A DNA stretch of 64,000 nucleotides from NCBI RefSeq assembly GCF_006539525.1, contig NZ_BJNE01000007.1, positions 1-64,000 on the forward strand. The letters are read 5' to 3'. A model generated the notes under the pieces. That model had not been told where the DNA came from, ran no database searches, and was given only the letters and a program-made list of their open reading frames with translations. Source of the DNA: Glutamicibacter nicotianae (GTDB lineage Bacteria > Actinomycetota > Actinomycetes > Actinomycetales > Micrococcaceae). A program made the position numbers and the translations under genes. Of the stretch, positions 14,590 through 56,489 are shown in pieces; the first letter of the stretch is position 1; each line of letters opens with the position of its first letter.

Positions 14590-14663
14590 GCCTCCGTAGC
14601 TCAGCTGGATAGAGCAAGAGCCTTCTAATCTCTAGGTCGCCGGTTCGAATCCGGCCGGGGGTA
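14590..14663 (+). tRNA. tRNA-Arg (anticodon TCT), phage-reconstituted 3' end
   Basis: Acceptor GCCTCCG pairs with CGGGGGT (G-U at positions 1-72 and T-G at 4-69), D arm TAGCTCAGCTGGATAGAGC, anticodon loop CTTCTAA (TCT), T arm GCCGG-TTCGAAT-CCGGC. The 3' half comes from the prophage: the downstream att copies carry a different T stem, GCGCG/CGCGC. The replacement keeps a fully paired T stem but weakens the first acceptor pair from G-C to G-U. Confidence 0.95.
14622..14640 (+). repeat. attL core of the prophage
   Basis: CTTCTAATCTCTAGGTCGC, covering the anticodon loop to the variable region of tRNA-Arg, identical to 53338-53356. Beyond it the sequences diverge in the T arm. Confidence 0.85.
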
Positions 14664-14674
14664 CAAAAGAGAAA

Positions 14675-14776: not shown

Positions 14777-16120
14777 TTAAGCGCCGCCGCCGAGGCGTTG
14801 CTTCCGGGCATCTGCAAGGGAAATGATGTTGCTCGTCGGTTCTGGTTCAGGGGTCCAGTGGCTGGTGAGTTTCTTGGCGACATCATCATGCATCTCGTCC
14901 AGCACATGCTGGTACCTGGTCAGCATTGCGACTTGCGACCATCCGAGAATCTCCATCACTACGCGTGGGTCGATGCCAAGAAGCAGGAGTGTCGTGGCCG
15001 CGGTATGCCGGCCGTCGTGGACGCGCCCGTCTGGGACTCCGGCTGACTCTAGAAAGTTCTTCCAGGCTTGCCAGTCGGCACGGTGATCTATCGGCTGGCC
15101 GTTCGGCCGGCAGAACACCAATTCGTGGGCCATCCCTGCCTGGTCGGTGTACGGCGCCCAATCTGCCGTGCGCTGCAGAACCTGGACTTTGCGGTGCTCC
15201 TTCAGAGCCGACAAAAGCTGGTCCGGCATTGGCACGCTTCGATTGCCTGCAGCACTCTTCGGTGGACCCGTAAAGAATCCGCCACCCTTCCGAGCAGGAC
15301 AGTTCGAACCGTACCTGCGCCCGCACTCGGAGACCTCGGCGCAACCATGCTTCCAAGGTAGAGAGAACACCTCACGCACAATCTTGATACGCCCGGTGTC
15401 GAAATTGATGTCCGACCAGGATAGACCGAGCGCTTCACCCTGCCTCGGGCCAAGCGTCAGATTCAGAATCCACCGAGCACCATCATCCAGCTCGACCGCG
15501 GCAGCAAGCATCTTCCGCACTTCCCCGGTCGTGTAAACCTGCGGCTCAAAATCAGACCGCCCAGCAACATCAACACGCAAAACCGGATTGCTACCCAGGA
15601 CACCACGATTCACAGCAACATTGAGCGCTCGCCGTAGGACTCGGTGAAGGCCAAGGATTGTGCTTGGTGATAGCGGGTCTGCAGTAGACCCTCGCTTGGT
15701 GGAGCGCTTCCTGCTCCCCCGCGCATCTTGGTAGAGAATATCGATGTCGGTCGGGGTGAGCTTGTCTAGACGCTTAGATGCGATCCTGTGGCCGCGCACG
15801 TAGTTGTCGATTTTGGAGCGATGCGCGTTGATAGTGCGTTCCTTGATGTCGTTGGGCGCGATCACGTCAAGATAGTGATCCAGCCACTCGATCATCCTCG
15901 GCGCACGCGATAGGGCCACCGAGCCACCCGAGGCCTTGTTGATCGCAGCGCGTAGCTTGGCAGCGCACTCGGCCTTGGTCTTGCCGTAGACGGATTTGCG
16001 GACAGGCTTGCCACTTGGGAGGTAGCCGGCAACGTAGTTCGATTGCCATTGGCCGTCTTTCCGCTGACGCGGCACCGTACCTTCGTTGTTGCTGCGCCTG
16101 GTTTGCCCTGAGGTAGTCAT
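14777..16120 (-). CDS. int: Prophage tyrosine integrase
   Basis: 447 aa site-specific recombinase for integration into tRNA-Arg and excision. N-terminal AP2-like arm-binding region, SAM-like core-binding domain (about 75-190), then the catalytic domain with Arg226 (LGPRQGEAL), His368 and Arg371 (HDGRH), Trp394 and the nucleophile Tyr403 (TRYQHV). A Cys-containing insert (Cys 250, 256, 264) lies between catalytic strands. ATG is preceded by AAGGAGGG. Its 3' end faces attL, 137 bp from the core. It follows the immA-like gene by 79 bp on the same strand, so they may share the SOS-box promoter. Confidence 0.95.
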   Translation of the reverse strand: MTTSGQTRRSNNEGTVPRQRKDGQWQSNYVAGYLPSGKPVRKSVYGKTKAECAAKLRAAINKASGGSVALSRAPRMIEWLDHYLDVIAPNDIKERTINAHRSKIDNYVRGHRIASKRLDKLTPTDIDILYQDARGSRKRSTKRGSTADPLSPSTILGLHRVLRRALNVAVNRGVLGSNPVLRVDVAGRSDFEPQVYTTGEVRKMLAAAVELDDGARWILNLTLGPRQGEALGLSWSDINFDTGRIKIVREVFSLPWKHGCAEVSECGRRYGSNCPARKGGGFFTGPPKSAAGNRSVPMPDQLLSALKEHRKVQVLQRTADWAPYTDQAGMAHELVFCRPNGQPIDHRADWQAWKNFLESAGVPDGRVHDGRHTAATTLLLLGIDPRVVMEILGWSQVAMLTRYQHVLDEMHDDVAKKLTSHWTPEPEPTSNIISLADARKQRLGGGA

Positions 16121-16199
16121 GGATCTTCCCTCCTTGGGGAAATTGTGCGCGCCAAATAGTCCCCCTTGGCGCGGTTGGTTACGAGATGTGGATAAGTGG

Positions 16200-16601
16200 T
16201 TAGGCGATGTGATCGCCCGGTGGCCACAGCGCCTGGATCTGGTCGCCGTCGAGGGTGGCCAGGCGGTCTAGGAGTACTTGCTCGGTGACTCCGAGCTCCT
16301 CGGCCATTTCGATCGGGCACCGGGACCAACCAGCAACGTCCTGCAGCGCTTCGAAGCTGACGAGGAATCGAGCTACTTCCAGGCAGACCTGCCGCTCGAT
16401 AGCCGGCGGCTGGCAGCCGGTGTGGCCGCGCTGGATATGGATCGACTCATGGGCCAGAAAGCACTTGCGCTCCACTGACGTGAGTTTCGGGTCAATCCAA
16501 ATGCGCCGACCGTCAGTGGCCGCGACTATGTCCGGGTACGGACGATTCCAAATAATCATGACGTGCGCGAGTGAGCGCAGCATGCCCCATACATTCTGCA
16601 T
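16200..16601 (-). CDS. ImmA/IrrE-type zinc metalloprotease
   Basis: 133 aa from the ATG at 16601. The zinc motif HESIH is at 51-55, preceded by a short beta region (RRIWIDPKL) and followed by the helical IrrE/ImmA tail. ImmA proteins of ICEs and phages cleave the cognate repressor on induction; the repressor gene lies three genes upstream on the same strand. No Shine-Dalgarno is present; a -10-like TATGTT ends 6 nt before the ATG, so the gene is probably leaderless, and an SOS box overlaps that promoter. A TTG start at 16658 would run through the SOS box and is less likely. Confidence 0.82.
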   Translation of the reverse strand: MQNVWGMLRSLAHVMIIWNRPYPDIVAATDGRRIWIDPKLTSVERKCFLAHESIHIQRGHTGCQPPAIERQVCLEVARFLVSFEALQDVAGWSRCPIEMAEELGVTEQVLLDRLATLDGDQIQALWPPGDHIA

Positions 16602-16604
16602 AAC

Positions 16605-16636
16605 TAGAACATATGTTCGAATATCAGTTTCGCCAA
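16605..16636 (-). promoter_or_regulatory. SOS (LexA) box overlapping the immA-int promoter
   Basis: TAGAACATATGTTCGA at 16605-16620 contains the perfect 12-bp palindrome GAACATATGTTC and matches the actinobacterial LexA consensus TCGAAC-N4-GTTCGA in all but two outer bases. On the minus strand it overlaps a predicted promoter: TTGGCG (16631-16636), 17-bp spacer, TATGTT (16608-16613). The ATG of the ImmA-like gene begins 6 nt later. LexA binding would block this promoter directly. Confidence 0.75.
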
Positions 16637-16675
16637 GTATGACGAATGAATTCGTCAAACTGTCAGAAGGTGATG

Positions 16676-17086
16676 CTAAAGCATAGCGATTGAGATGCCT
16701 TCAAGTTCGTGTTTGAACTCCGTACCGTCGGCATTGAATGCGCGATTTCTCGATTCGTCCATCAAGCGGATCCATCCCTCGACAGACAGGCCACCAGGTA
16801 TGGACACGGCACCACCGGACGCCTCCGGCGTATGCTTCATGATAATGACGCGAATCTGGTCATCCATCAACGTCGCCAGGGCGATTGTCTCGTGCGGCGA
16901 CTTCTCGAATCGATGAACAGTAACTACAGCAGATTCATCCTTGTCCGCCGCCATAACCACCGCGTCACCATCTTCATCAACGGGCGCTACAGACATGAGG
17001 CGGTCATGGAATTTCTTACTGAGAAGATCCGCATTCAAGCGCGCCGCAACAGCTGCGCGCCGCGCTAATTGCTCGTTGGCAACCAC
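16676..17086 (-). CDS. Phage hypothetical protein
   Basis: 136 aa from a GTG at 17086 with GGAGAG 6 nt upstream. Mixed charged protein, no membrane segment; not recognised. It overlaps the end of the next upstream gene by 22 bp and is part of a leftward unit repressor-17065-16676. Alternative TTG start at 17098. Confidence 0.65.
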   Translation of the reverse strand: MVANEQLARRAAVAARLNADLLSKKFHDRLMSVAPVDEDGDAVVMAADKDESAVVTVHRFEKSPHETIALATLMDDQIRVIIMKHTPEASGGAVSIPGGLSVEGWIRLMDESRNRAFNADGTEFKHELEGISIAML

Positions 17087-17487
17087 TGTTCTCTCCAATC
17101 GACGGCCTGCCCAGAGATGCGATGAGTCGAATCAATAAAGCAGTTGTGGACCTGTAGGACAGAGTCTAGCTGACAGAGCGACTCCGCCGGAAGATCGCGT
17201 CGAGGGTACTGGAAATCCCAGCGGTGCCAATGGTAATTCGCATGGCTACTGCAACCGCGAATAACATCCGCGGGCTTAGGCATGTCCGGATGCTCACTCT
17301 GTACTCCGACGCTAAAGTCGACGACCAGGTCTCCCACGGACTTGCAGCGCTTTACCCGTGTGACCGTCCTGAGGCCCTCTCCCAAATCGACCTTCACGGC
17401 CCGCGAATCATCACTGCAACCAGCGCATTCTCCGTGCCAGAACGCTCCTGGCACTAACCGATCATGGGGCTTGCGGCTCTTGGCCAT
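17065..17487 (-). CDS. Phage hypothetical protein, Cys/His-containing
   Basis: 140 aa, not recognised. CAGC near residue 21 together with later Cys and His residues (CSSHANYHWH) could bind metal; that is only a possibility. The ATG overlaps the stop of the repressor gene (TAATG), which indicates translational coupling with it. Confidence 0.65.
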   Translation of the reverse strand: MAKSRKPHDRLVPGAFWHGECAGCSDDSRAVKVDLGEGLRTVTRVKRCKSVGDLVVDFSVGVQSEHPDMPKPADVIRGCSSHANYHWHRWDFQYPRRDLPAESLCQLDSVLQVHNCFIDSTHRISGQAVDWREQWLPTSN

Positions 17488-18182
17488 TATTCACCTCCTG
17501 GATAATCGCCACGCTCGGCGGTTTCTTCGTCGAGCTGCTCGCGCTTAGTCTTTACCTTCGGGTGAGCCGCGAGTTGCTCGCGTGGCGGTACTGGGATGTT
17601 CCTGGCTTCGTCACCATGGAGTTCGACAACGGAGAAGTTTTCCGGATCCGCTTCTTCCCTCGCTTCGCTAGCTTTGCGAATTAGATCAAGGGTCTTCTGT
17701 TTCGAGCCATCTGGATCATCCGCAGTCCAACTAGCCCGAACTGCCCGCCGCTCCTGCTTAGCCTGTTCAAATTTTCCGCGAGCTTGTTCGCGGCCCGTTT
17801 CACGAATTGTTTGAGTGTCATTGTTAATCGTTTCAAGGTCGACGAGGACCCGAACCATTTCGACAACGGCCTTCCGTGACTTCGGCGAGAGATTGTCTGC
17901 ACCCGGTGGAAGTTCGTCGGCTAGTGGCGGGCCGGGGACTGGTTGTCCCGCTGCTGCGAACGCTACGGATTCCTCGACGCCGGCCAGGTATGCAATCGCC
18001 TTGAGAGTCACCTCGCTAGGCTTCGACTTATAGATGCCGTTGCGAATCTGGTTGATCGTCGTATAGACGATCTTGAAACCGGCTTCTTGCGCCTTGAAGG
18101 CTAGCTGCCGAGCGGACGTCTGGTGTCGCTCGATCGCCATTTCAATTAGGCCCTTGAGGGTTTCTGTCTCGTTCACAACCAC
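17487..18182 (-). CDS. Putative prophage repressor (HTH protein)
   Basis: 231 aa. The N-terminal 75 residues (SARQLAFKAQEAGFKIVYTTINQIRNGIYKSKPSEVTLKAIAYLAGV) form an XRE-type helix-turn-helix. The middle is Pro-rich, followed by a long charged, probably coiled-coil, region and a hydrophilic tail. No LexA-like Ser/Lys protease motif is seen, which fits inactivation by the neighbouring ImmA-type protease. It is divergent from an XRE gene at 18403 across a 220-bp switch region. GTG start with AGGAAAG; a GTG two codons downstream is also possible. Confidence 0.72.
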   Translation of the reverse strand: MVVNETETLKGLIEMAIERHQTSARQLAFKAQEAGFKIVYTTINQIRNGIYKSKPSEVTLKAIAYLAGVEESVAFAAAGQPVPGPPLADELPPGADNLSPKSRKAVVEMVRVLVDLETINNDTQTIRETGREQARGKFEQAKQERRAVRASWTADDPDGSKQKTLDLIRKASEAREEADPENFSVVELHGDEARNIPVPPREQLAAHPKVKTKREQLDEETAERGDYPGGE

Positions 18183-18402
18183 GACTTTCCTAGATGAACT
18201 CTCACTTGCTCAATAGTGGAAACGACTTTCTTGAAAAGTAGAAAACACTACTCCCGCATAGTTTACGGGGAGATTTCACTTTTCGCCTTGACAAGCTAGT
18301 GCGAAGCGGTGTGTACTTAGGTTGTCAAAATGAAAAGCGAAGGGAATACTGGTTATGCGTGGAACACGTCGACATCTCAATCTCGTTCGAAAGGAGAGTT
18401 GG
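18183..18402. promoter_or_regulatory. Lysogeny switch region with rightward promoter
   Basis: A predicted rightward promoter has TTGACA at 18288-18293, an 18-bp spacer and TGTACT at 18312-18317. Three copies of GAAAAG-type sequence occur at 18233-18238 (plus), 18279-18284 (minus) and 18332-18337 (plus), flanking the promoter, and ACTTT-N5-AAAGT forms a small palindrome near 18225-18239. These are candidate operators for the repressor; inferred from position and repetition. Confidence 0.5.
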
Positions 18403-18681
18403 ATGCGTGTCATAGATCCGGCTGCGCTGCGGCGCAAGCGAATCAATCAGCGGTTCAGCCAGCGTGATCTGGCTGGCTTGGTGCGCCGGTCGCAGGCGAC
18501 CATTCACCAGCTGGAAACCGGCAAGATGAAAACCCTGACGGAAGATCTGGCCCTACTCATTTCGGCGCGCCTCTTCACTCCCTGGGAGGAATTGTTCACC
18601 CTTGAAGAGCATGAAATCGCGCCTCGTGTTGCAAGTGGTGTTAACACCAAAACTACGGCTTCGGAATCGAGGGTGGCATGA
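18403..18681 (+). CDS. XRE-family helix-turn-helix protein (Cro-like)
   Basis: 92 aa from the ATG at 18403, supported by GAAAGGAGAG upstream. HTH FSQRDLAGLVRRSQATIHQLETGKMKTLTEDLALLISARL covers most of the protein, with a short hydrophilic tail. First gene of the rightward early operon, divergent from the repressor, so a Cro-like role is probable. Its TGA overlaps the ATG of the next gene. Confidence 0.78.
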   Translation: MRVIDPAALRRKRINQRFSQRDLAGLVRRSQATIHQLETGKMKTLTEDLALLISARLFTPWEELFTLEEHEIAPRVASGVNTKTTASESRVA

Positions 18682-20030: not shown

Positions 20031-20070
20031 GATGAAACCAATAACCAACGGTAAGAAAGGCGTGATTTCA

Positions 20071-20358
20071 ATGACCAGTGTAGTCAATTTCCCGCAGACC
20101 CGCAGAGGTGAGCGGGTGATCGATGTGGAACCAGGCATTCCGATGTCCCAGCGTCCTGTCCGGTTGCTGTACTCGGTGATCGAGGCAGGCGAGCTGCTCT
20201 CAGTGAGCAAGCAGACCATTTACAACCTGATCGACCAGGGCGACCTGCCCAAGGTGATGATCGGCCGGACAGGCAAGACCATCCGCATCGCGGCGTCTGA
20301 CTTGCAGGCGTACATCGATAACCAGCGTGTGGAGGTGCAGCCATCATGGGCGATCTGA
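20071..20358 (+). CDS. Excisionase-like helix-turn-helix protein
   Basis: 95 aa from the ATG at 20071, preceded by AAGAAAGG. A MerR/Xis-like winged helix (YSVIEAGELLSVSKQTIYNLIDQGDLPKVMIGRTGKTIRIAASDLQAYIDN) occupies residues about 30-85, as in excisionase-family DNA-binding proteins. It could direct excision with Int or regulate early genes; the int gene is about 4 kb away, so it may instead be a regulator. Confidence 0.78.
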   Translation: MTSVVNFPQTRRGERVIDVEPGIPMSQRPVRLLYSVIEAGELLSVSKQTIYNLIDQGDLPKVMIGRTGKTIRIAASDLQAYIDNQRVEVQPSWAI

Positions 20359-53337: not shown

Positions 53338-53375
53338 CTTCTAATCTCTAGGTCGCGCGTTCGAGTCGCGCCGGG
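53338..53375 (+). repeat. Middle att copy (attR of the prophage, attL of the second element)
   Basis: Contains the 19-bp core shared with tRNA-Arg (53338-53356). From 53340 to 53375 it is identical over 36 bp to 56395-56430. It keeps the T stem GCGCG/CGCGC and the acceptor end CGGGGGC. It is a tRNA 3' half without a 5' half, not a working tRNA. Confidence 0.88.
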
Positions 53376-53388
53376 GGCACAAAGAAAC

Positions 53389-53427
53389 ACCGTCCGACTA
53401 GGCATAATGCCAAATCGGACGGTTTTC
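53389..53427 (+). terminator. Terminator behind the middle att copy
   Basis: ACCGTCCGA / TCGGACGGT stem with an inner GGCAT/ATGCC hairpin, followed by TTTT. It occupies the same place as the tRNA-Arg terminators at 14675 and 56443 but differs in sequence. Confidence 0.75.
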
Positions 53428-53449
53428 AATTACCGGCCAGATACGCTCA

Positions 53450-53474
53450 ACCCAGCGGAAACCCAGCGGAAACG
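53450..53474 (+). repeat. Arm-type sites of the second integrase, left
   Basis: ACCCAGCGGAA repeated directly at 53450 and 53461 (11-bp period), the second extended to ACCCAGCGGAAACG. The same motif recurs at 56261-56285. Confidence 0.65.
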
Positions 53475-53603
53475 CCGGGTAGATTACGGTAAATTCCGGG
53501 TATGGTGTGCAACTCAACGCCACACCTCACACGAATACCTAGACCAATTGAACGCGTACAATAAGTCGTAAGTGATCGACGTGAAAGTCACTCATTACCT
53601 AAA

Positions 53604-53639
53604 AAACCATCCCACCGTTGTAAAACAGTGGGATGGTTC
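53604..53639 (-). terminator. Terminator of the small membrane protein gene
   Basis: AACCATCCCAC / GTGGGATGGTT stem; on the minus strand it is followed by TTTTTT. It begins 15 bp after the stop at 53655. Confidence 0.75.
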
Positions 53640-53654
53640 TTCGCATTCATGAAT

Positions 53655-53897
53655 CTAGGAACTGGTGCAGAAGCCACCTGCGGCGGATAGTCGAGTTACC
53701 ATGTCGTATAACACATTCGTAGTAATACCCATAAGCAACTCCCTCGCAATCTTCAGTATCCTGGCAAATTCTCCACTTATCAGATGGGAAATGATTACGT
53801 CTAGGATCATGAAAAATACGATAACAGCGACTACACACACTACGACCGGAATCGAACCGGCCCCCCAACCCCAATACCTAGATCCAAGTCGGCTCAC
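53655..53897 (-). CDS. Small membrane protein of the second element
   Basis: 80 aa or shorter. A strongly hydrophobic segment (VVVCVVAVIVFFMILDVIISHL) and a following amphipathic helix. No clear ribosome site; the internal ATG codons offer alternative starts. The well-placed minus-strand terminator supports expression. Function not recognised. The 280 bp upstream (53898-54179) show no gene. Confidence 0.45.
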   Translation of the reverse strand: MSRLGSRYWGWGAGSIPVVVCVVAVIVFFMILDVIISHLISGEFARILKIARELLMGITTNVLYDMVTRLSAAGGFCTSS

Positions 53898-54179
53898 TCA
53901 CAATAACATTTATGCATAAGCAAAGCACCTTCGATTACGGGACAAACCCCGAGGTTGCCCTGGGGGTGCGGGGTTCGGCTGCGGTCGGGATCAGATTCTC
54001 CCCCGGCATTGCCGTCTACACACAGTGAAAAAACGCAGATGAACACGTCTGGGTTATTTTTCCACACATGGATACGGGTAAAGCCACCAGCTGCGGTGTT
54101 TACTGGCGGCCTTGTAGCACCCGAAAGAAAAGTTCCTCTTTCAGTCTACGGTGATACCTGTTTTTGGCTACACGTTGGG

Positions 54180-54775
54180 TTATCTTTGTCCGGTCATCTG
54201 CCGGTTGCCGCGGCGTGCTTCCCGCTTCGCAGAGCGCATCCGCCCATCCGCCACATCAGAGACGTAAGCAGTGAACTCATGCCCATCCACGACGAGCGTC
54301 ATCCTGTCCGGGAACTGCTGTGCGCCCCGCTGCGCGAGAGTGGAGATGTCCCTCCACTGCCGGCTAGTGAGGATCGCTTCAGGCTGCCGAGTCAGGTTCA
54401 TGACCTGGCTTAGCCCCGGATTCAACACGCCGCCGTTGTCGTACAAATAGTTGCGGTAGTTGAACGGGACCCCGTTGCGCCACAGCTCCGCGTGCAAGTG
54501 CGGGCCGGTGGATCGGCCTGTGTTGCCCGAAGATGCGATACGGTCACCGGCCTTGACCTCGTCACCGGGACGCTTGCCCCAAGCGGACAAGTGCCCGTAA
54601 TACGAGCTCAGCCCGTTCGCGTGGTCAACAACCATGCCCCTACCTGTACGGCCCGGAACAACGTTAGTGCCGATCTTTCGGACGATACCGTTGAGCATCG
54701 ACCGGACAGCACTACCGATACCCACCGCGAAGTCGATACCCGCGTGTGGCCACCGGCCACGGCTAGCACTGCCAC
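54180..54775 (-). pseudogene. 3' end of a phage tail gene with M23 peptidase domain
   Basis: About 198 C-terminal residues of a tape-measure-like protein. M23 zinc motif: HAGIDF (H-x3-D) and GPHLHAE (H-x-H), followed by the tail-type ending GGVLNPGLSQVMNLTRQPEAILTSRQW. Upstream of about 54776 the reading frame stays open but loses domain character. Read as the surviving 3' part of a gene of several kilobases cut by deletion; residual lysin activity is conceivable but no start is evident. Confidence 0.7.
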
Positions 54776-55058
54776 TGAACAACAGGCCGAAGTCTTGGCG
54801 AAGAAACACCGGATCGCAAAAGACTCCCCGGAGATCCAGGCGCTTTTGAAAGACCACCCGTCGCCGGCCATGCAAGCGGCCGCCGATGCGTTGAACCTCG
54901 ACGCTCACGACTGGGTCCAAGTTGAACCGTCCGCAGATGACCGGGCCAGTAAAAAATACTTTGTCGGCAAAGACGTGTTGCACCCTGGTTCGGGTGAACA
55001 AAAACCGAACCCGACCAACTCCGGAGTTTCTTCCCAGTGGATAGAAGCTGAAGGCTAA
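54776..55058 (+). pseudogene. Truncated phage gene fragment upstream of int
   Basis: The plus-strand frame from about 54776 has protein-like composition (QQAEVLAKKHRIAKDSPEIQ ... NLDAHDWVQVEPSADD) and ends 21 bp before the integrase start. It lacks a plausible start: upstream of 54776 the opposite strand is the M23 gene. It is probably the 3' end of a phage gene joined at the same deletion point. Identity unknown. Confidence 0.45.
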
Positions 55059-55079
55059 GAGCAACAGAATGGGGGAACC

Positions 55080-56261
55080 ATGCCACGCCCACCGCTCCCA
55101 ATAGGTTCCTGGGGGAAGATCTCCCGCAAAGAGATCTCGCCCGGTGTTTGGCGTGCCATCGCACGATTCAGAGACTTCGACGGAGTCACCCGGCAACTGG
55201 AAAAGACCGTCCCAGGTCGCTCCGGCGCCGCGGCTGAACGCGCCTTCATCATCGACATGCAGGACCGCGCCAACTCAGTAGGCGCGGACATCACCCGCGA
55301 AACCCGTTTGAACGACGTCATCGAACTATGGTGGACCGAGGTCAAAGACAAGCGTCTCGCGGAGCGCACCCTCGACCGCTACGGGCAAGTCCTCGACTCG
55401 CACGTAATCCCCGGCATCGGCTCCCTGCGCGTCCGCGAAGCCACAGTGCCAGCACTAGAGCGGTTCCTGCGCGCCCTCGCGTCCAGCAGCGGACACAGCA
55501 CCGCCAAGCAGTCCAAGAGCGTCCTATCAGGCATCCTAGGGCTGGCAGTACGCCACGGAGCCCTAGAGTCGAACCCGATCCGCGACGTGTCCCCCATCCA
55601 GATCGAAACTAAGACCGTCCGCGCACTCACCGTGGAAGAAGCCCAAGCCCTGCGCGCCGGCCTGCAACATTGGCAACAGACCAAAGATGCCCAAGGCCGG
55701 CAACGTCCCCAAGACCTCTTGGAAGTAGTGGACATCATGCTTGCCACCGGCTGCCGCATCGGCGAAGCCCTAGGCATCCGCTGGTCCGATGTCGACCTGG
55801 CAGCCACCCCCGCGACAGTGACCATCAACGGCACACTGGTCTACGTGAAAGGCCAAGGCGTGAAATGGCAACCCCTCCCGAAAAGCGAGGGATCCAGACT
55901 CACCTACAGCCTGCCCTCATTCGCGCGGGACACGCTTTTCAGGCGAACCACCGAAGCGATCCGCAACCCCTATGATGTCGTGTTCCCTTCATCGGTGGAC
56001 AAGCTCAGGGATCCGAGCAGCTACAGGAAACAATGGAACATGGCGCGTGAAGCGATCGGTTTCGAGTGGGTCACTCCGCACACGTTCCGAAAGTCCGTGG
56101 GAACAATCCTGGCGAACGCCGAAGGTGTCGGAGCAGCTGCAGCCCAGCTGGGCCACTCATCGGCCAGCGTCACGACAAAGCACTACGTCCAAAAGAATAC
56201 GAATGCACCGGACCATGCCGCGGTGTTGGAGCAGTTCGCCACCAAGAACCCAGGACCGTAG
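55080..56261 (+). CDS. int: Tyrosine integrase of the second element
   Basis: 393 aa. N-terminal arm-binding domain (WGKISRKEISPGVWRAIARFRDFDG), core-binding domain about 75-170, catalytic domain with Arg226 (GCRIGEAL), His334 and Arg337 (HTFRK), His359 (LGHSS) and nucleophile Tyr369 (TKHYV). Intact, so it may still act on the flanking 36-bp att copies. It is only distantly similar to the integrase at 14777 and uses different arm repeats although it targets the same tRNA. Confidence 0.95.
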   Translation: MPRPPLPIGSWGKISRKEISPGVWRAIARFRDFDGVTRQLEKTVPGRSGAAAERAFIIDMQDRANSVGADITRETRLNDVIELWWTEVKDKRLAERTLDRYGQVLDSHVIPGIGSLRVREATVPALERFLRALASSSGHSTAKQSKSVLSGILGLAVRHGALESNPIRDVSPIQIETKTVRALTVEEAQALRAGLQHWQQTKDAQGRQRPQDLLEVVDIMLATGCRIGEALGIRWSDVDLAATPATVTINGTLVYVKGQGVKWQPLPKSEGSRLTYSLPSFARDTLFRRTTEAIRNPYDVVFPSSVDKLRDPSSYRKQWNMAREAIGFEWVTPHTFRKSVGTILANAEGVGAAAAQLGHSSASVTTKHYVQKNTNAPDHAAVLEQFATKNPGP

Positions 56262-56285
56262 CCCAGCGTTTACCCAGCGGAAACG
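56261..56285 (+). repeat. Arm-type sites of the second integrase, right
   Basis: GCCCAGCGTTT followed 11 bp later by ACCCAGCGGAAACG, just after the int stop and 110 bp before the att core. Matches 53450-53474. Confidence 0.65.
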
Positions 56286-56394
56286 TTTCATAACAGCGTC
56301 TCACGCGAACTAATTGGAACCCTCAGAAAGTGGTGAATCTCCAAGTCAATCAATGAATAGATGCGAACATGTGAGACACGATTATCGCCTTGCC

Positions 56395-56430
56395 TCTAAT
56401 CTCTAGGTCGCGCGTTCGAGTCGCGCCGGG
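56395..56430 (+). repeat. Distal att copy
   Basis: 36 bp identical to 53340-53375, then TGCAC instead of GGCAC, so one acceptor-stem base differs. A tRNA 3' half without a 5' half. Confidence 0.88.
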
Positions 56431-56442
56431 TGCACGGACAAG

Positions 56443-56489
56443 AAACCGCCGTTCACTTGGTCAAACAAGTGAACGGCGGTTTCTTTTTG
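56443..56489 (+). terminator. Terminator behind the distal att copy
   Basis: 17-bp perfect stem AAACCGCCGTTCACTTG and complement, with the same 6-nt loop GTCAAA as at 14675, then CTTTTTG. Confidence 0.88.

What the first reader, a model, noticed from the sequence alone, without database searches (positions are those of the whole stretch)
16200..16636. SOS box placed on a leaderless immA-like/int promoter
A near-consensus LexA site overlaps the predicted -10 element of an ImmA/IrrE-type protease gene that leads directly into int. In known ImmA systems induction goes through RecA or signalling peptides acting on the protein; here host LexA would control transcription of the repressor protease and integrase. 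That would be a direct wiring of DNA damage to both repressor removal and excision.
Basis: partly seen in the sequence, partly recalled or inferred. Interest (0 to 1): 0.75.

Follow-up and report, generated by a model that had tools for sequence, protein, structure and literature searches.

The report
Damage-switched protease gene of a prophage
A dormant virus in a soil bacterium appears to have put the gene for its wake-up protease under the host's own DNA-damage switch, and related viruses that have swapped their repressors and integrases have kept this switch in exactly the same place.

Summary
In a ~39-kb tRNA-Arg prophage of a Glutamicibacter-type host, TAGAACATATGTTCGA (16605-16620) ends 3 nt before the ATG (16601) of a 133-aa ImmA/IrrE-type protease gene that leads into int. 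The motif alone is not significant: ≤1-mismatch sites are no commoner in the genome than reversed controls (24 vs 30). Comparison makes the case. In 12 of 12 loci of the window's ImmA clade the palindrome lies exactly 3 nt before the ATG, at 90% pairwise identity against 29-42% around it. Its centre always spells TATNTT, a -10 element at leaderless spacing, and no Shine-Dalgarno site precedes the ATG. The box stays with immA although the integrase is tyrosine or serine type and the repressor's DNA-binding half is exchanged (about 20% identity). Boxes also sit at immA starts in two other ImmA groups. The host carries like sites at recA, lexA, a dnaE2-linked gene and dinB. Host LexA most likely represses immA(-int), so DNA damage would switch on the protease by transcription. 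That ImmA cuts the repressor is supported only indirectly, by a conserved repressor tail (LAAH). LexA-controlled antirepressors and ImmA proteases are both known; my searches did not show the combination. All evidence is computational.

The parts
16605..16620 (.). LexA (SOS) box TAGAACATATGTTCGA; core GAAC-ATAT-GTTC palindrome
   Evidence: same place in 12 of 12 loci of the clade
16608..16613 (-). -10 hexamer TATGTT inside the box, at -12..-7 if transcription starts at the A of the ATG
   Evidence: TAT(G/A/C)TT in 14 of 14 loci shown (two of them chosen for having the box)
16632..16637 (-). weak -35-like hexamer CTTGGC (TTTGGT, TTGCCA, TCGACA in relatives), 18 nt before the -10
   Evidence: inference; not found by the consensus scan
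16200..16601 (-). immA: 133-aa M78/IrrE-type metalloprotease, HExxH (HESIH), ATG start without ribosome-binding site; too short for a GAF domain
16147..16174 (-). hairpin (CGCGCCAA...TTGGCGCG) between immA and int, in like form in 6 of the 7 tyrosine-integrase loci folded; role unknown
16128..16135 (-). Shine-Dalgarno AAGGAGGG of int
14777..16120 (-). tyrosine integrase
16676..17098 (-). ORF without convincing family match; no match in the relatives' loci searched
17065..17487 (-). ORF without family match; no match in the relatives' loci searched
17487..18182 (-). immunity repressor (PHROG 12831 transcriptional repressor, 9.5e-20), presumed ImmA substrate
17523..17627 (-). conserved repressor tail VELHGDEARNIPVPPREQLAAHPKVKTKREQLDEE (residues 186-220), candidate ImmA recognition or cleavage site
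18355..18681 (+). divergent Cro-like HTH gene
20032..20358 (+). excisionase-like HTH gene
14622..14667 (+). attL (inferred) in the 3' end of tRNA-Arg (14590-14664)
53338..53383 (+). probable attR (87% to attL, first 19 bp identical)

Best explanation
A prophage induction switch gated by transcription. In the lysogen, host LexA binds 16605-16620 and blocks a leaderless promoter whose -10 lies inside the site, so little ImmA is made (inferred). DNA damage activates RecA, LexA cleaves itself, and the immA(-int) transcript is made (inferred). ImmA, a minimal IrrE-fold metalloprotease too short to hold the GAF domain of IrrE, inactivates the repressor 17487-18182 through its conserved C-terminal LAAH tail (inferred). 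The divergent cro/xis/replication operon is then freed, and Int from the same transcript is available for excision (inferred). Shown here: box, position, promoter geometry, conservation, predicted protease fold, gene order, conserved tail. Not shown: binding, induction, cleavage.
For: Palindrome at -19..-4 in 12 of 12 loci of the clade, flanks at 29-42% identity, no Shine-Dalgarno site. It persists with tyrosine integrase (8) and serine integrase (5) in the 14 loci; the 14th, L026, ends before int and the matching locus L030 has a serine type. It persists with two repressor types of ~20% HTH identity. The regions upstream of the two repressor types show other repeats (TTGACAA/TTGTCAA; GTGTCC) and no LexA-like box at <=2 mismatches in 10 of 10 (one at 3, L023). 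Host sites of the same form lie at recA, lexA, a dnaE2-linked gene and a dinB-like gene. Boxes at immA starts also in L093/L103/L164 and L154/L155/L157. IrrE/PprI fold. Repressor tails 51-86% identical while HTH halves are 15-23% identical over 24 pairs.
Against: Motif counts alone do not exceed controls. In the clade the core is perfect in only 7 of 12; L027 and L073 carry GAATATATATTC. A site of that form lies 42 nt from a host dinB-like ORF, but LexA binding to it is untested. Two other rows of the wider starred group (L079, L177) have no box. Most distant ImmA loci, and 17 of 17 phage-collection loci scanned, lack a box (<=2 mismatches) within 200 nt upstream of the start, so the family does not need it. 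A sigma-70 consensus scan finds no promoter there. ImmA could also be made by read-through from the repressor operon. No binding, expression or cleavage data.
Confidence: 0.7

Rival explanations
1. The palindrome is an operator of the phage's own repressor (or Cro), which controls immA-int.
For: It lies inside the prophage beside the repressor operon; in the Listeria monocin element the repressor controls its own repressor-protease genes (passages).
Against: The box is kept although the repressor HTH is exchanged (~20% identity between types), and the regions upstream of both repressor types contain other repeats and no box at <=2 mismatches. The same motif stands at host SOS genes.
Confidence: 0.07
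2. LexA controls the promoter, but its purpose is integrase (or immA for establishment after infection); induction uses RecA or another signal acting on ImmA protein.
For: ICEBs1 ImmA is activated through RecA or RapI (passages); pneumococcal ImmAR prophages respond to mitomycin C in a host without LexA (passages); int is in line.
Against: The box stays with immA when int changes type or strand (G061); int has its own Shine-Dalgarno site.
Confidence: 0.15
3. Chance palindrome or plain promoter sequence without LexA function.
For: Motif frequency is no higher than in controls.
Against: Conservation and fixed position in 12 of 12 loci and enrichment at immA starts.
Confidence: 0.05

Closest known systems
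LexA-controlled phage antirepressors: Tum (186), AntC (N15), GfoA/GfhA (Gifsy-1/-3)
   Same: LexA directly represses a prophage gene whose product inactivates a repressor; one antirepressor can act on differing repressors (abstract and Discussion of PMC3121763).
   Different: Tum and the Gifsy proteins act by binding the repressor; here the gene encodes an IrrE-fold metalloprotease and lies within the repressor-to-int block.
ICEBs1 ImmR-ImmA-Int
   Same: Repressor, ImmA-type protease and int in one block, divergent xis operon (passages).
   Different: In ICEBs1 ImmA is activated by RecA-dependent damage signalling or RapI; here a LexA-box promoter lies directly before immA. Sequence distance to ICEBs1 ImmA was not measured.
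Listeria MpaR / monocin repressor
   Same: ImmA-type antirepressor; mitomycin-driven excision of phi10403S needs a cleavable LexA (passages).
   Different: Overexpressed monocin repressor lowers mpaR transcription; the term 'SOS box' does not occur in that paper's main text.
IrrE/PprI-DdrO of Deinococcus
   Same: Protease fold and cleavage of a repressor.
   Different: GAF-like domain, activation of the protein by zinc or ssDNA rather than LexA (passages).
Mycobacterium/Gordonia/Arthrobacter phage repressor - IrrE-like protein - integrase modules
   Same: Similar gene order and homologous protease.
   Different: No LexA box (<=2 mismatches) within 200 nt upstream of the protease start in 17 of 17 loci scanned, of 19 fetched.

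Membership tests
LexA (SOS) regulon of the host | Site matching the actinobacterial LexA motif over the promoter | tested here: met
   motif tCGAAC-N4-GNNCGa in Streptomyces venezuelae (passages of PMC9380542)
LexA (SOS) regulon of the host | Host has LexA and like sites at recA, lexA, a dnaE2-linked gene, dinB | tested here: met
   gene names other than lexA assigned from sequence by eye
LexA (SOS) regulon of the host | LexA binds; transcript rises on DNA damage | not testable with these tools
   needs experiment
ImmA/IrrE (M78, COG2856) metalloproteases | HExxH and the IrrE fold | tested here: met
   Pfam M78 score 19.6 is below its cut-off of 22 and NCBIfam has no fitting model
ImmA/IrrE (M78, COG2856) metalloproteases | Cleaves a neighbouring repressor | not testable with these tools
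   repressor upstream; conserved tail is indirect support only
LexA-controlled antirepressor (Tum/AntC/Gifsy type) | Antirepressor gene directly under LexA | tested here: inconclusive
   site and promoter geometry fit; regulation untested
LexA-controlled antirepressor (Tum/AntC/Gifsy type) | Antirepressor that acts by binding, not by proteolysis | tested here: not met
   the product has a predicted metalloprotease fold and active-site motif
ICEBs1-type ImmR/ImmA switch | Protease activated after translation by RecA or RapI | not testable with these tools
   post-translational control not excluded

The most novel reading that the evidence does not exclude
Damage sensing is handed entirely to host LexA, and the ImmA protease, having no sensor of its own, is active once made. 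It trims the repressor at the conserved tail motif (L/M)-A-A|(H/Y/D/R), leaving a C-terminal -LAA like the host ssrA tag (AESKRTDFALAA), so that ClpXP removes the DNA-binding half, as with the latent ClpX signals uncovered when LexA is cut (passages). The exchangeable repressor heads with a common tail would make this a portable switch, reached separately in about three ImmA groups. Against the degron part: Annalisa has ELVG and BaxterFox ELAN at this place beside an HExxH gene, L100 has MAG, and no cut site is known.
Probability: 0.12. Interest if true: 0.82.

Novelty: new variant of a known kind. Interest (0 to 1): 0.62.

Why it matters
[quoted passage not shown] In this clade there is a simple, testable answer: the gene is under LexA. 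It joins two separate induction strategies, LexA-controlled antirepressors and ImmA proteases, predicts a class of prophages whose induction follows the SOS regulon directly, and the shared repressor tail gives a defined candidate substrate motif for the protease.

Tried and rejected
Motif counts as evidence: rejected, no excess over controls. TTG start at 16658: rejected, since relatives share the ATG at 16601 and the bases upstream are not conserved. Box as repressor operator: rejected as main reading. GAATATATATTC loci as counter-examples: partly resolved, since a host site TCGAATGTATATTCGA lies 42 nt from a dinB-like ORF (105 nt from a divergent ORF), and dnaE2-region sites with one GAAT arm occur in G023 and G246. 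Repressor tail and protease co-occurrence as statistics: too few negatives. Of 25 type-A repressor matches, by my hand reading: 20 have an AA tail motif and a homologous protease or an HExxH ORF (six by motif alone) near; G156 has the tail and only a 46-residue protease match; G077 has neither; 3 were dropped (G217 second copy and G024 truncated, G040 near a contig end). Phage Getalong lacks an annotated protease but its alanine-rich tail is ambiguous. L077's perfect box about 100 nt upstream of immA lies near a divergent ORF and is ambiguous. L080 and L153 were labelled 'box' in the tree by a loose rule and are probably chance. The promoter scan found nothing at the immA start. Not scanned for boxes: 22 of the 65 non-own places (one, G118, was scanned); also not scanned: places without a locus. 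L158 was placed by guess and left out of the tree. The tree has SH-aLRT support only (quick search), 30 of 88 inner branches open; the L093/L103/L164 group has support 80 and a long branch (L164). Of the 14 loci, L075 and L076 were picked because they carry the box, run while checking this report, repeats the count on the unpicked 12-row clade.

Full report
What is there. The window lies in contig C7 of a 3.55-Mb assembly. The named relatives are Glutamicibacter ardleyensis, Arthrobacter sp. MYb213 and Glutamicibacter protophormiae, so I call the host Glutamicibacter-type (inference). A prophage starts at tRNA-Arg (14590-14664). The tRNA 3' end repeats at 53338-53383 (87%) and 56393-56438 (78%), and terminase, portal, head protease and tape-measure genes lie between. 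On the minus strand run the repressor (17487-18182), two ORFs without convincing family match, the 133-aa protease (16200-16601) and a tyrosine integrase (14777-16120).

The site. TAGAACATATGTTCGA at 16605-16620 is one mismatch from TCGAAC-N4-GTTCGA. Such sites are not rarer than chance allows: 24 in the genome at ≤1 mismatch against 30 for the reversed control. The case therefore rests on comparison.

Conservation. Eight viral contigs encode ImmA at 74-91% identity. More come from 395 Micrococcaceae genomes (59 with a match, own included) and three named genomes (identical in the start region to L026/L034, L027/L033 and L035). On an ImmA tree of 91 rows the window sits in a 12-row group (SH-aLRT 99). 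In these 12 of 12 loci the palindrome lies 3 nt before the ATG. Pairwise identity is 90% in the palindrome and 29%, 42%, 41% and 35% in the four blocks around it. The GAAC/GTTC core is perfect in 7, one base off in 3 (L025, L026, L074) and two off, symmetrically, in 2 (L027, L073). Two further loci of other genera, L075 and L076, picked because they have a box, show the same spacing; with them the figures are 89% against 30-39%. The -12..-7 hexamer in the 14 is TATGTT (11), TATATT (2) or TATCTT (1), and the best AGGAGG match before the ATG is 2-3 of 6. A fixed distance, no ribosome-binding site and a -10 inside the box fit a leaderless promoter that LexA would cover. Two other rows of the wider starred group (L079, L177) have no box.

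Wider survey. Among 43 immA loci of the family, 5 boxes at ≤1 mismatch (4 perfect) lie within -130..+20 of the match start (6,450 bp) and 0 in 298,585 bp of flank (loci are related, so no p-value is claimed). One of the five (L077) is about 100 nt upstream and ambiguous. In the order-level search (52 of 396 genomes with a match) I scanned 27 loci: boxes at ≤1 mismatch at the start in L154, L155 and L164, 2 mismatches in L157, none at ≤1 mismatch elsewhere in those loci. On the 91-row tree 20 rows were labelled by a loose rule and the label needs at least 9 changes; 18 of the 20 fall into three groups, of which L154/L155/L157 has support 99 and L093/L103/L164 only 80; L080 and L153 are probably chance. 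In L093, L103 and L164 the box overlaps the start codon itself. None of 17 phage-collection loci scanned has a box (≤2 mismatches) within 200 nt upstream.

Who reads it. Host sites of this form stand before recA (TCGAACACCTGTTCGG), lexA (TCGAACAAGTTTTCGA), a gene linked to dnaE2 (TCGAACACATGTTCGA) and a dinB-like gene (TCGAATGTATATTCGA) (names other than lexA given by eye). The last suggests that GAAT arms, as in L027 and L073, can serve. The box does not follow the phage repressor. Six type-A and four type-B repressors differ in the HTH half (15-23% identity over 24 pairs), and their upstream regions carry different repeats. It does not follow one kind of int: in the 14 loci int is tyrosine type in 8 and serine type in 5; the contig of L026 ends before int, and the matching locus L030 has a serine type.

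The protease and its presumed substrate. AlphaFold2 gives pLDDT 92.1, and the four best PDB matches are IrrE/PprI at probability 1.00 (E 6.4e-3 to 4.1e-2; none at E ≤0.001). At 133 aa it is too short for the GAF domain of IrrE. The repressor tail (E-L/F-H-G...LAAH-PK...) is 51-86% identical between repressors whose HTH halves are about 20% identical. The two ORFs between repressor and immA have no match in the 40 loci searched, 11 of which reach past the repressor, so tail and immA are not conserved by simple adjacency. In wider loci the tail is mostly (L/M)-A-(A/G)-x, in many followed by an acidic end such as GEES; phage repressors vary more (KAAR, AAAR, EAAR, VAAQ), and Annalisa (LVG) and BaxterFox (LAN) depart from it. 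The host ssrA tag ends ALAA, which suggests, and does not show, a hidden ClpX signal.

Known context. LexA-controlled antirepressors are established (abstract and Discussion of PMC3121763; passages of PMC12637031). ImmA-type proteases are described as activated through RecA, RapI, zinc or ssDNA (passages of PMC10233336, PMC11841131, PMC7907104, PMC12637031). In Listeria, excision of phi10403S under mitomycin C needs a cleavable LexA (passages of PMC6872733). In Streptomyces venezuelae LexA binds tCGAAC-N4-GNNCGa, and genes of a predicted prophage cluster are among the targets with the highest upregulation (passages of PMC9380542). The listings of searches (several capped at 10-20 rows), and the passages above, showed no LexA box at an immA gene; only open-licence PMC papers were covered and few were opened.

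Verdict. Real, conserved, most likely a LexA-repressed leaderless promoter of an ImmA antirepressor protease. New variant of a known kind. Binding, induction and cleavage remain to be tested.

Noticed in passing
53338-56489: A second tyrosine integrase (55080-56261) and a further copy of the tRNA end plus the 47-nt hairpin repeat (56393-56489) suggest a second, small element in tandem behind the prophage.
   Followed up: partly
16147-16174 and relatives L023, L024, L025, L028, L035: A hairpin between immA and int (CGCGCCAA...TTGGCGCG) recurs before tyrosine integrases, in several loci followed by a second one over the int Shine-Dalgarno site; it may hold back int translation.
   Followed up: partly
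16640-16680 and relatives: An upstream pair GACA-TTT ... GTCA-ATT recurs before immA in loci of either repressor type; possible site of a phage regulator or integrase.
   Followed up: no
L062-L072, L115-L122: Many Mycobacterium, Gordonia and Arthrobacter phage protease genes share a TGTCGGTG-like element shortly before the start; no LexA box. Regulator unknown.
   Followed up: no
L093, L103, L164: The LexA-like box overlaps the immA start codon; its right half (TTCGA) encodes residues 2-3, an easy path for the box to arise.
   Followed up: partly
L188 (G156): A LAAH-tailed repressor beside only a partial protease match.
   Followed up: no
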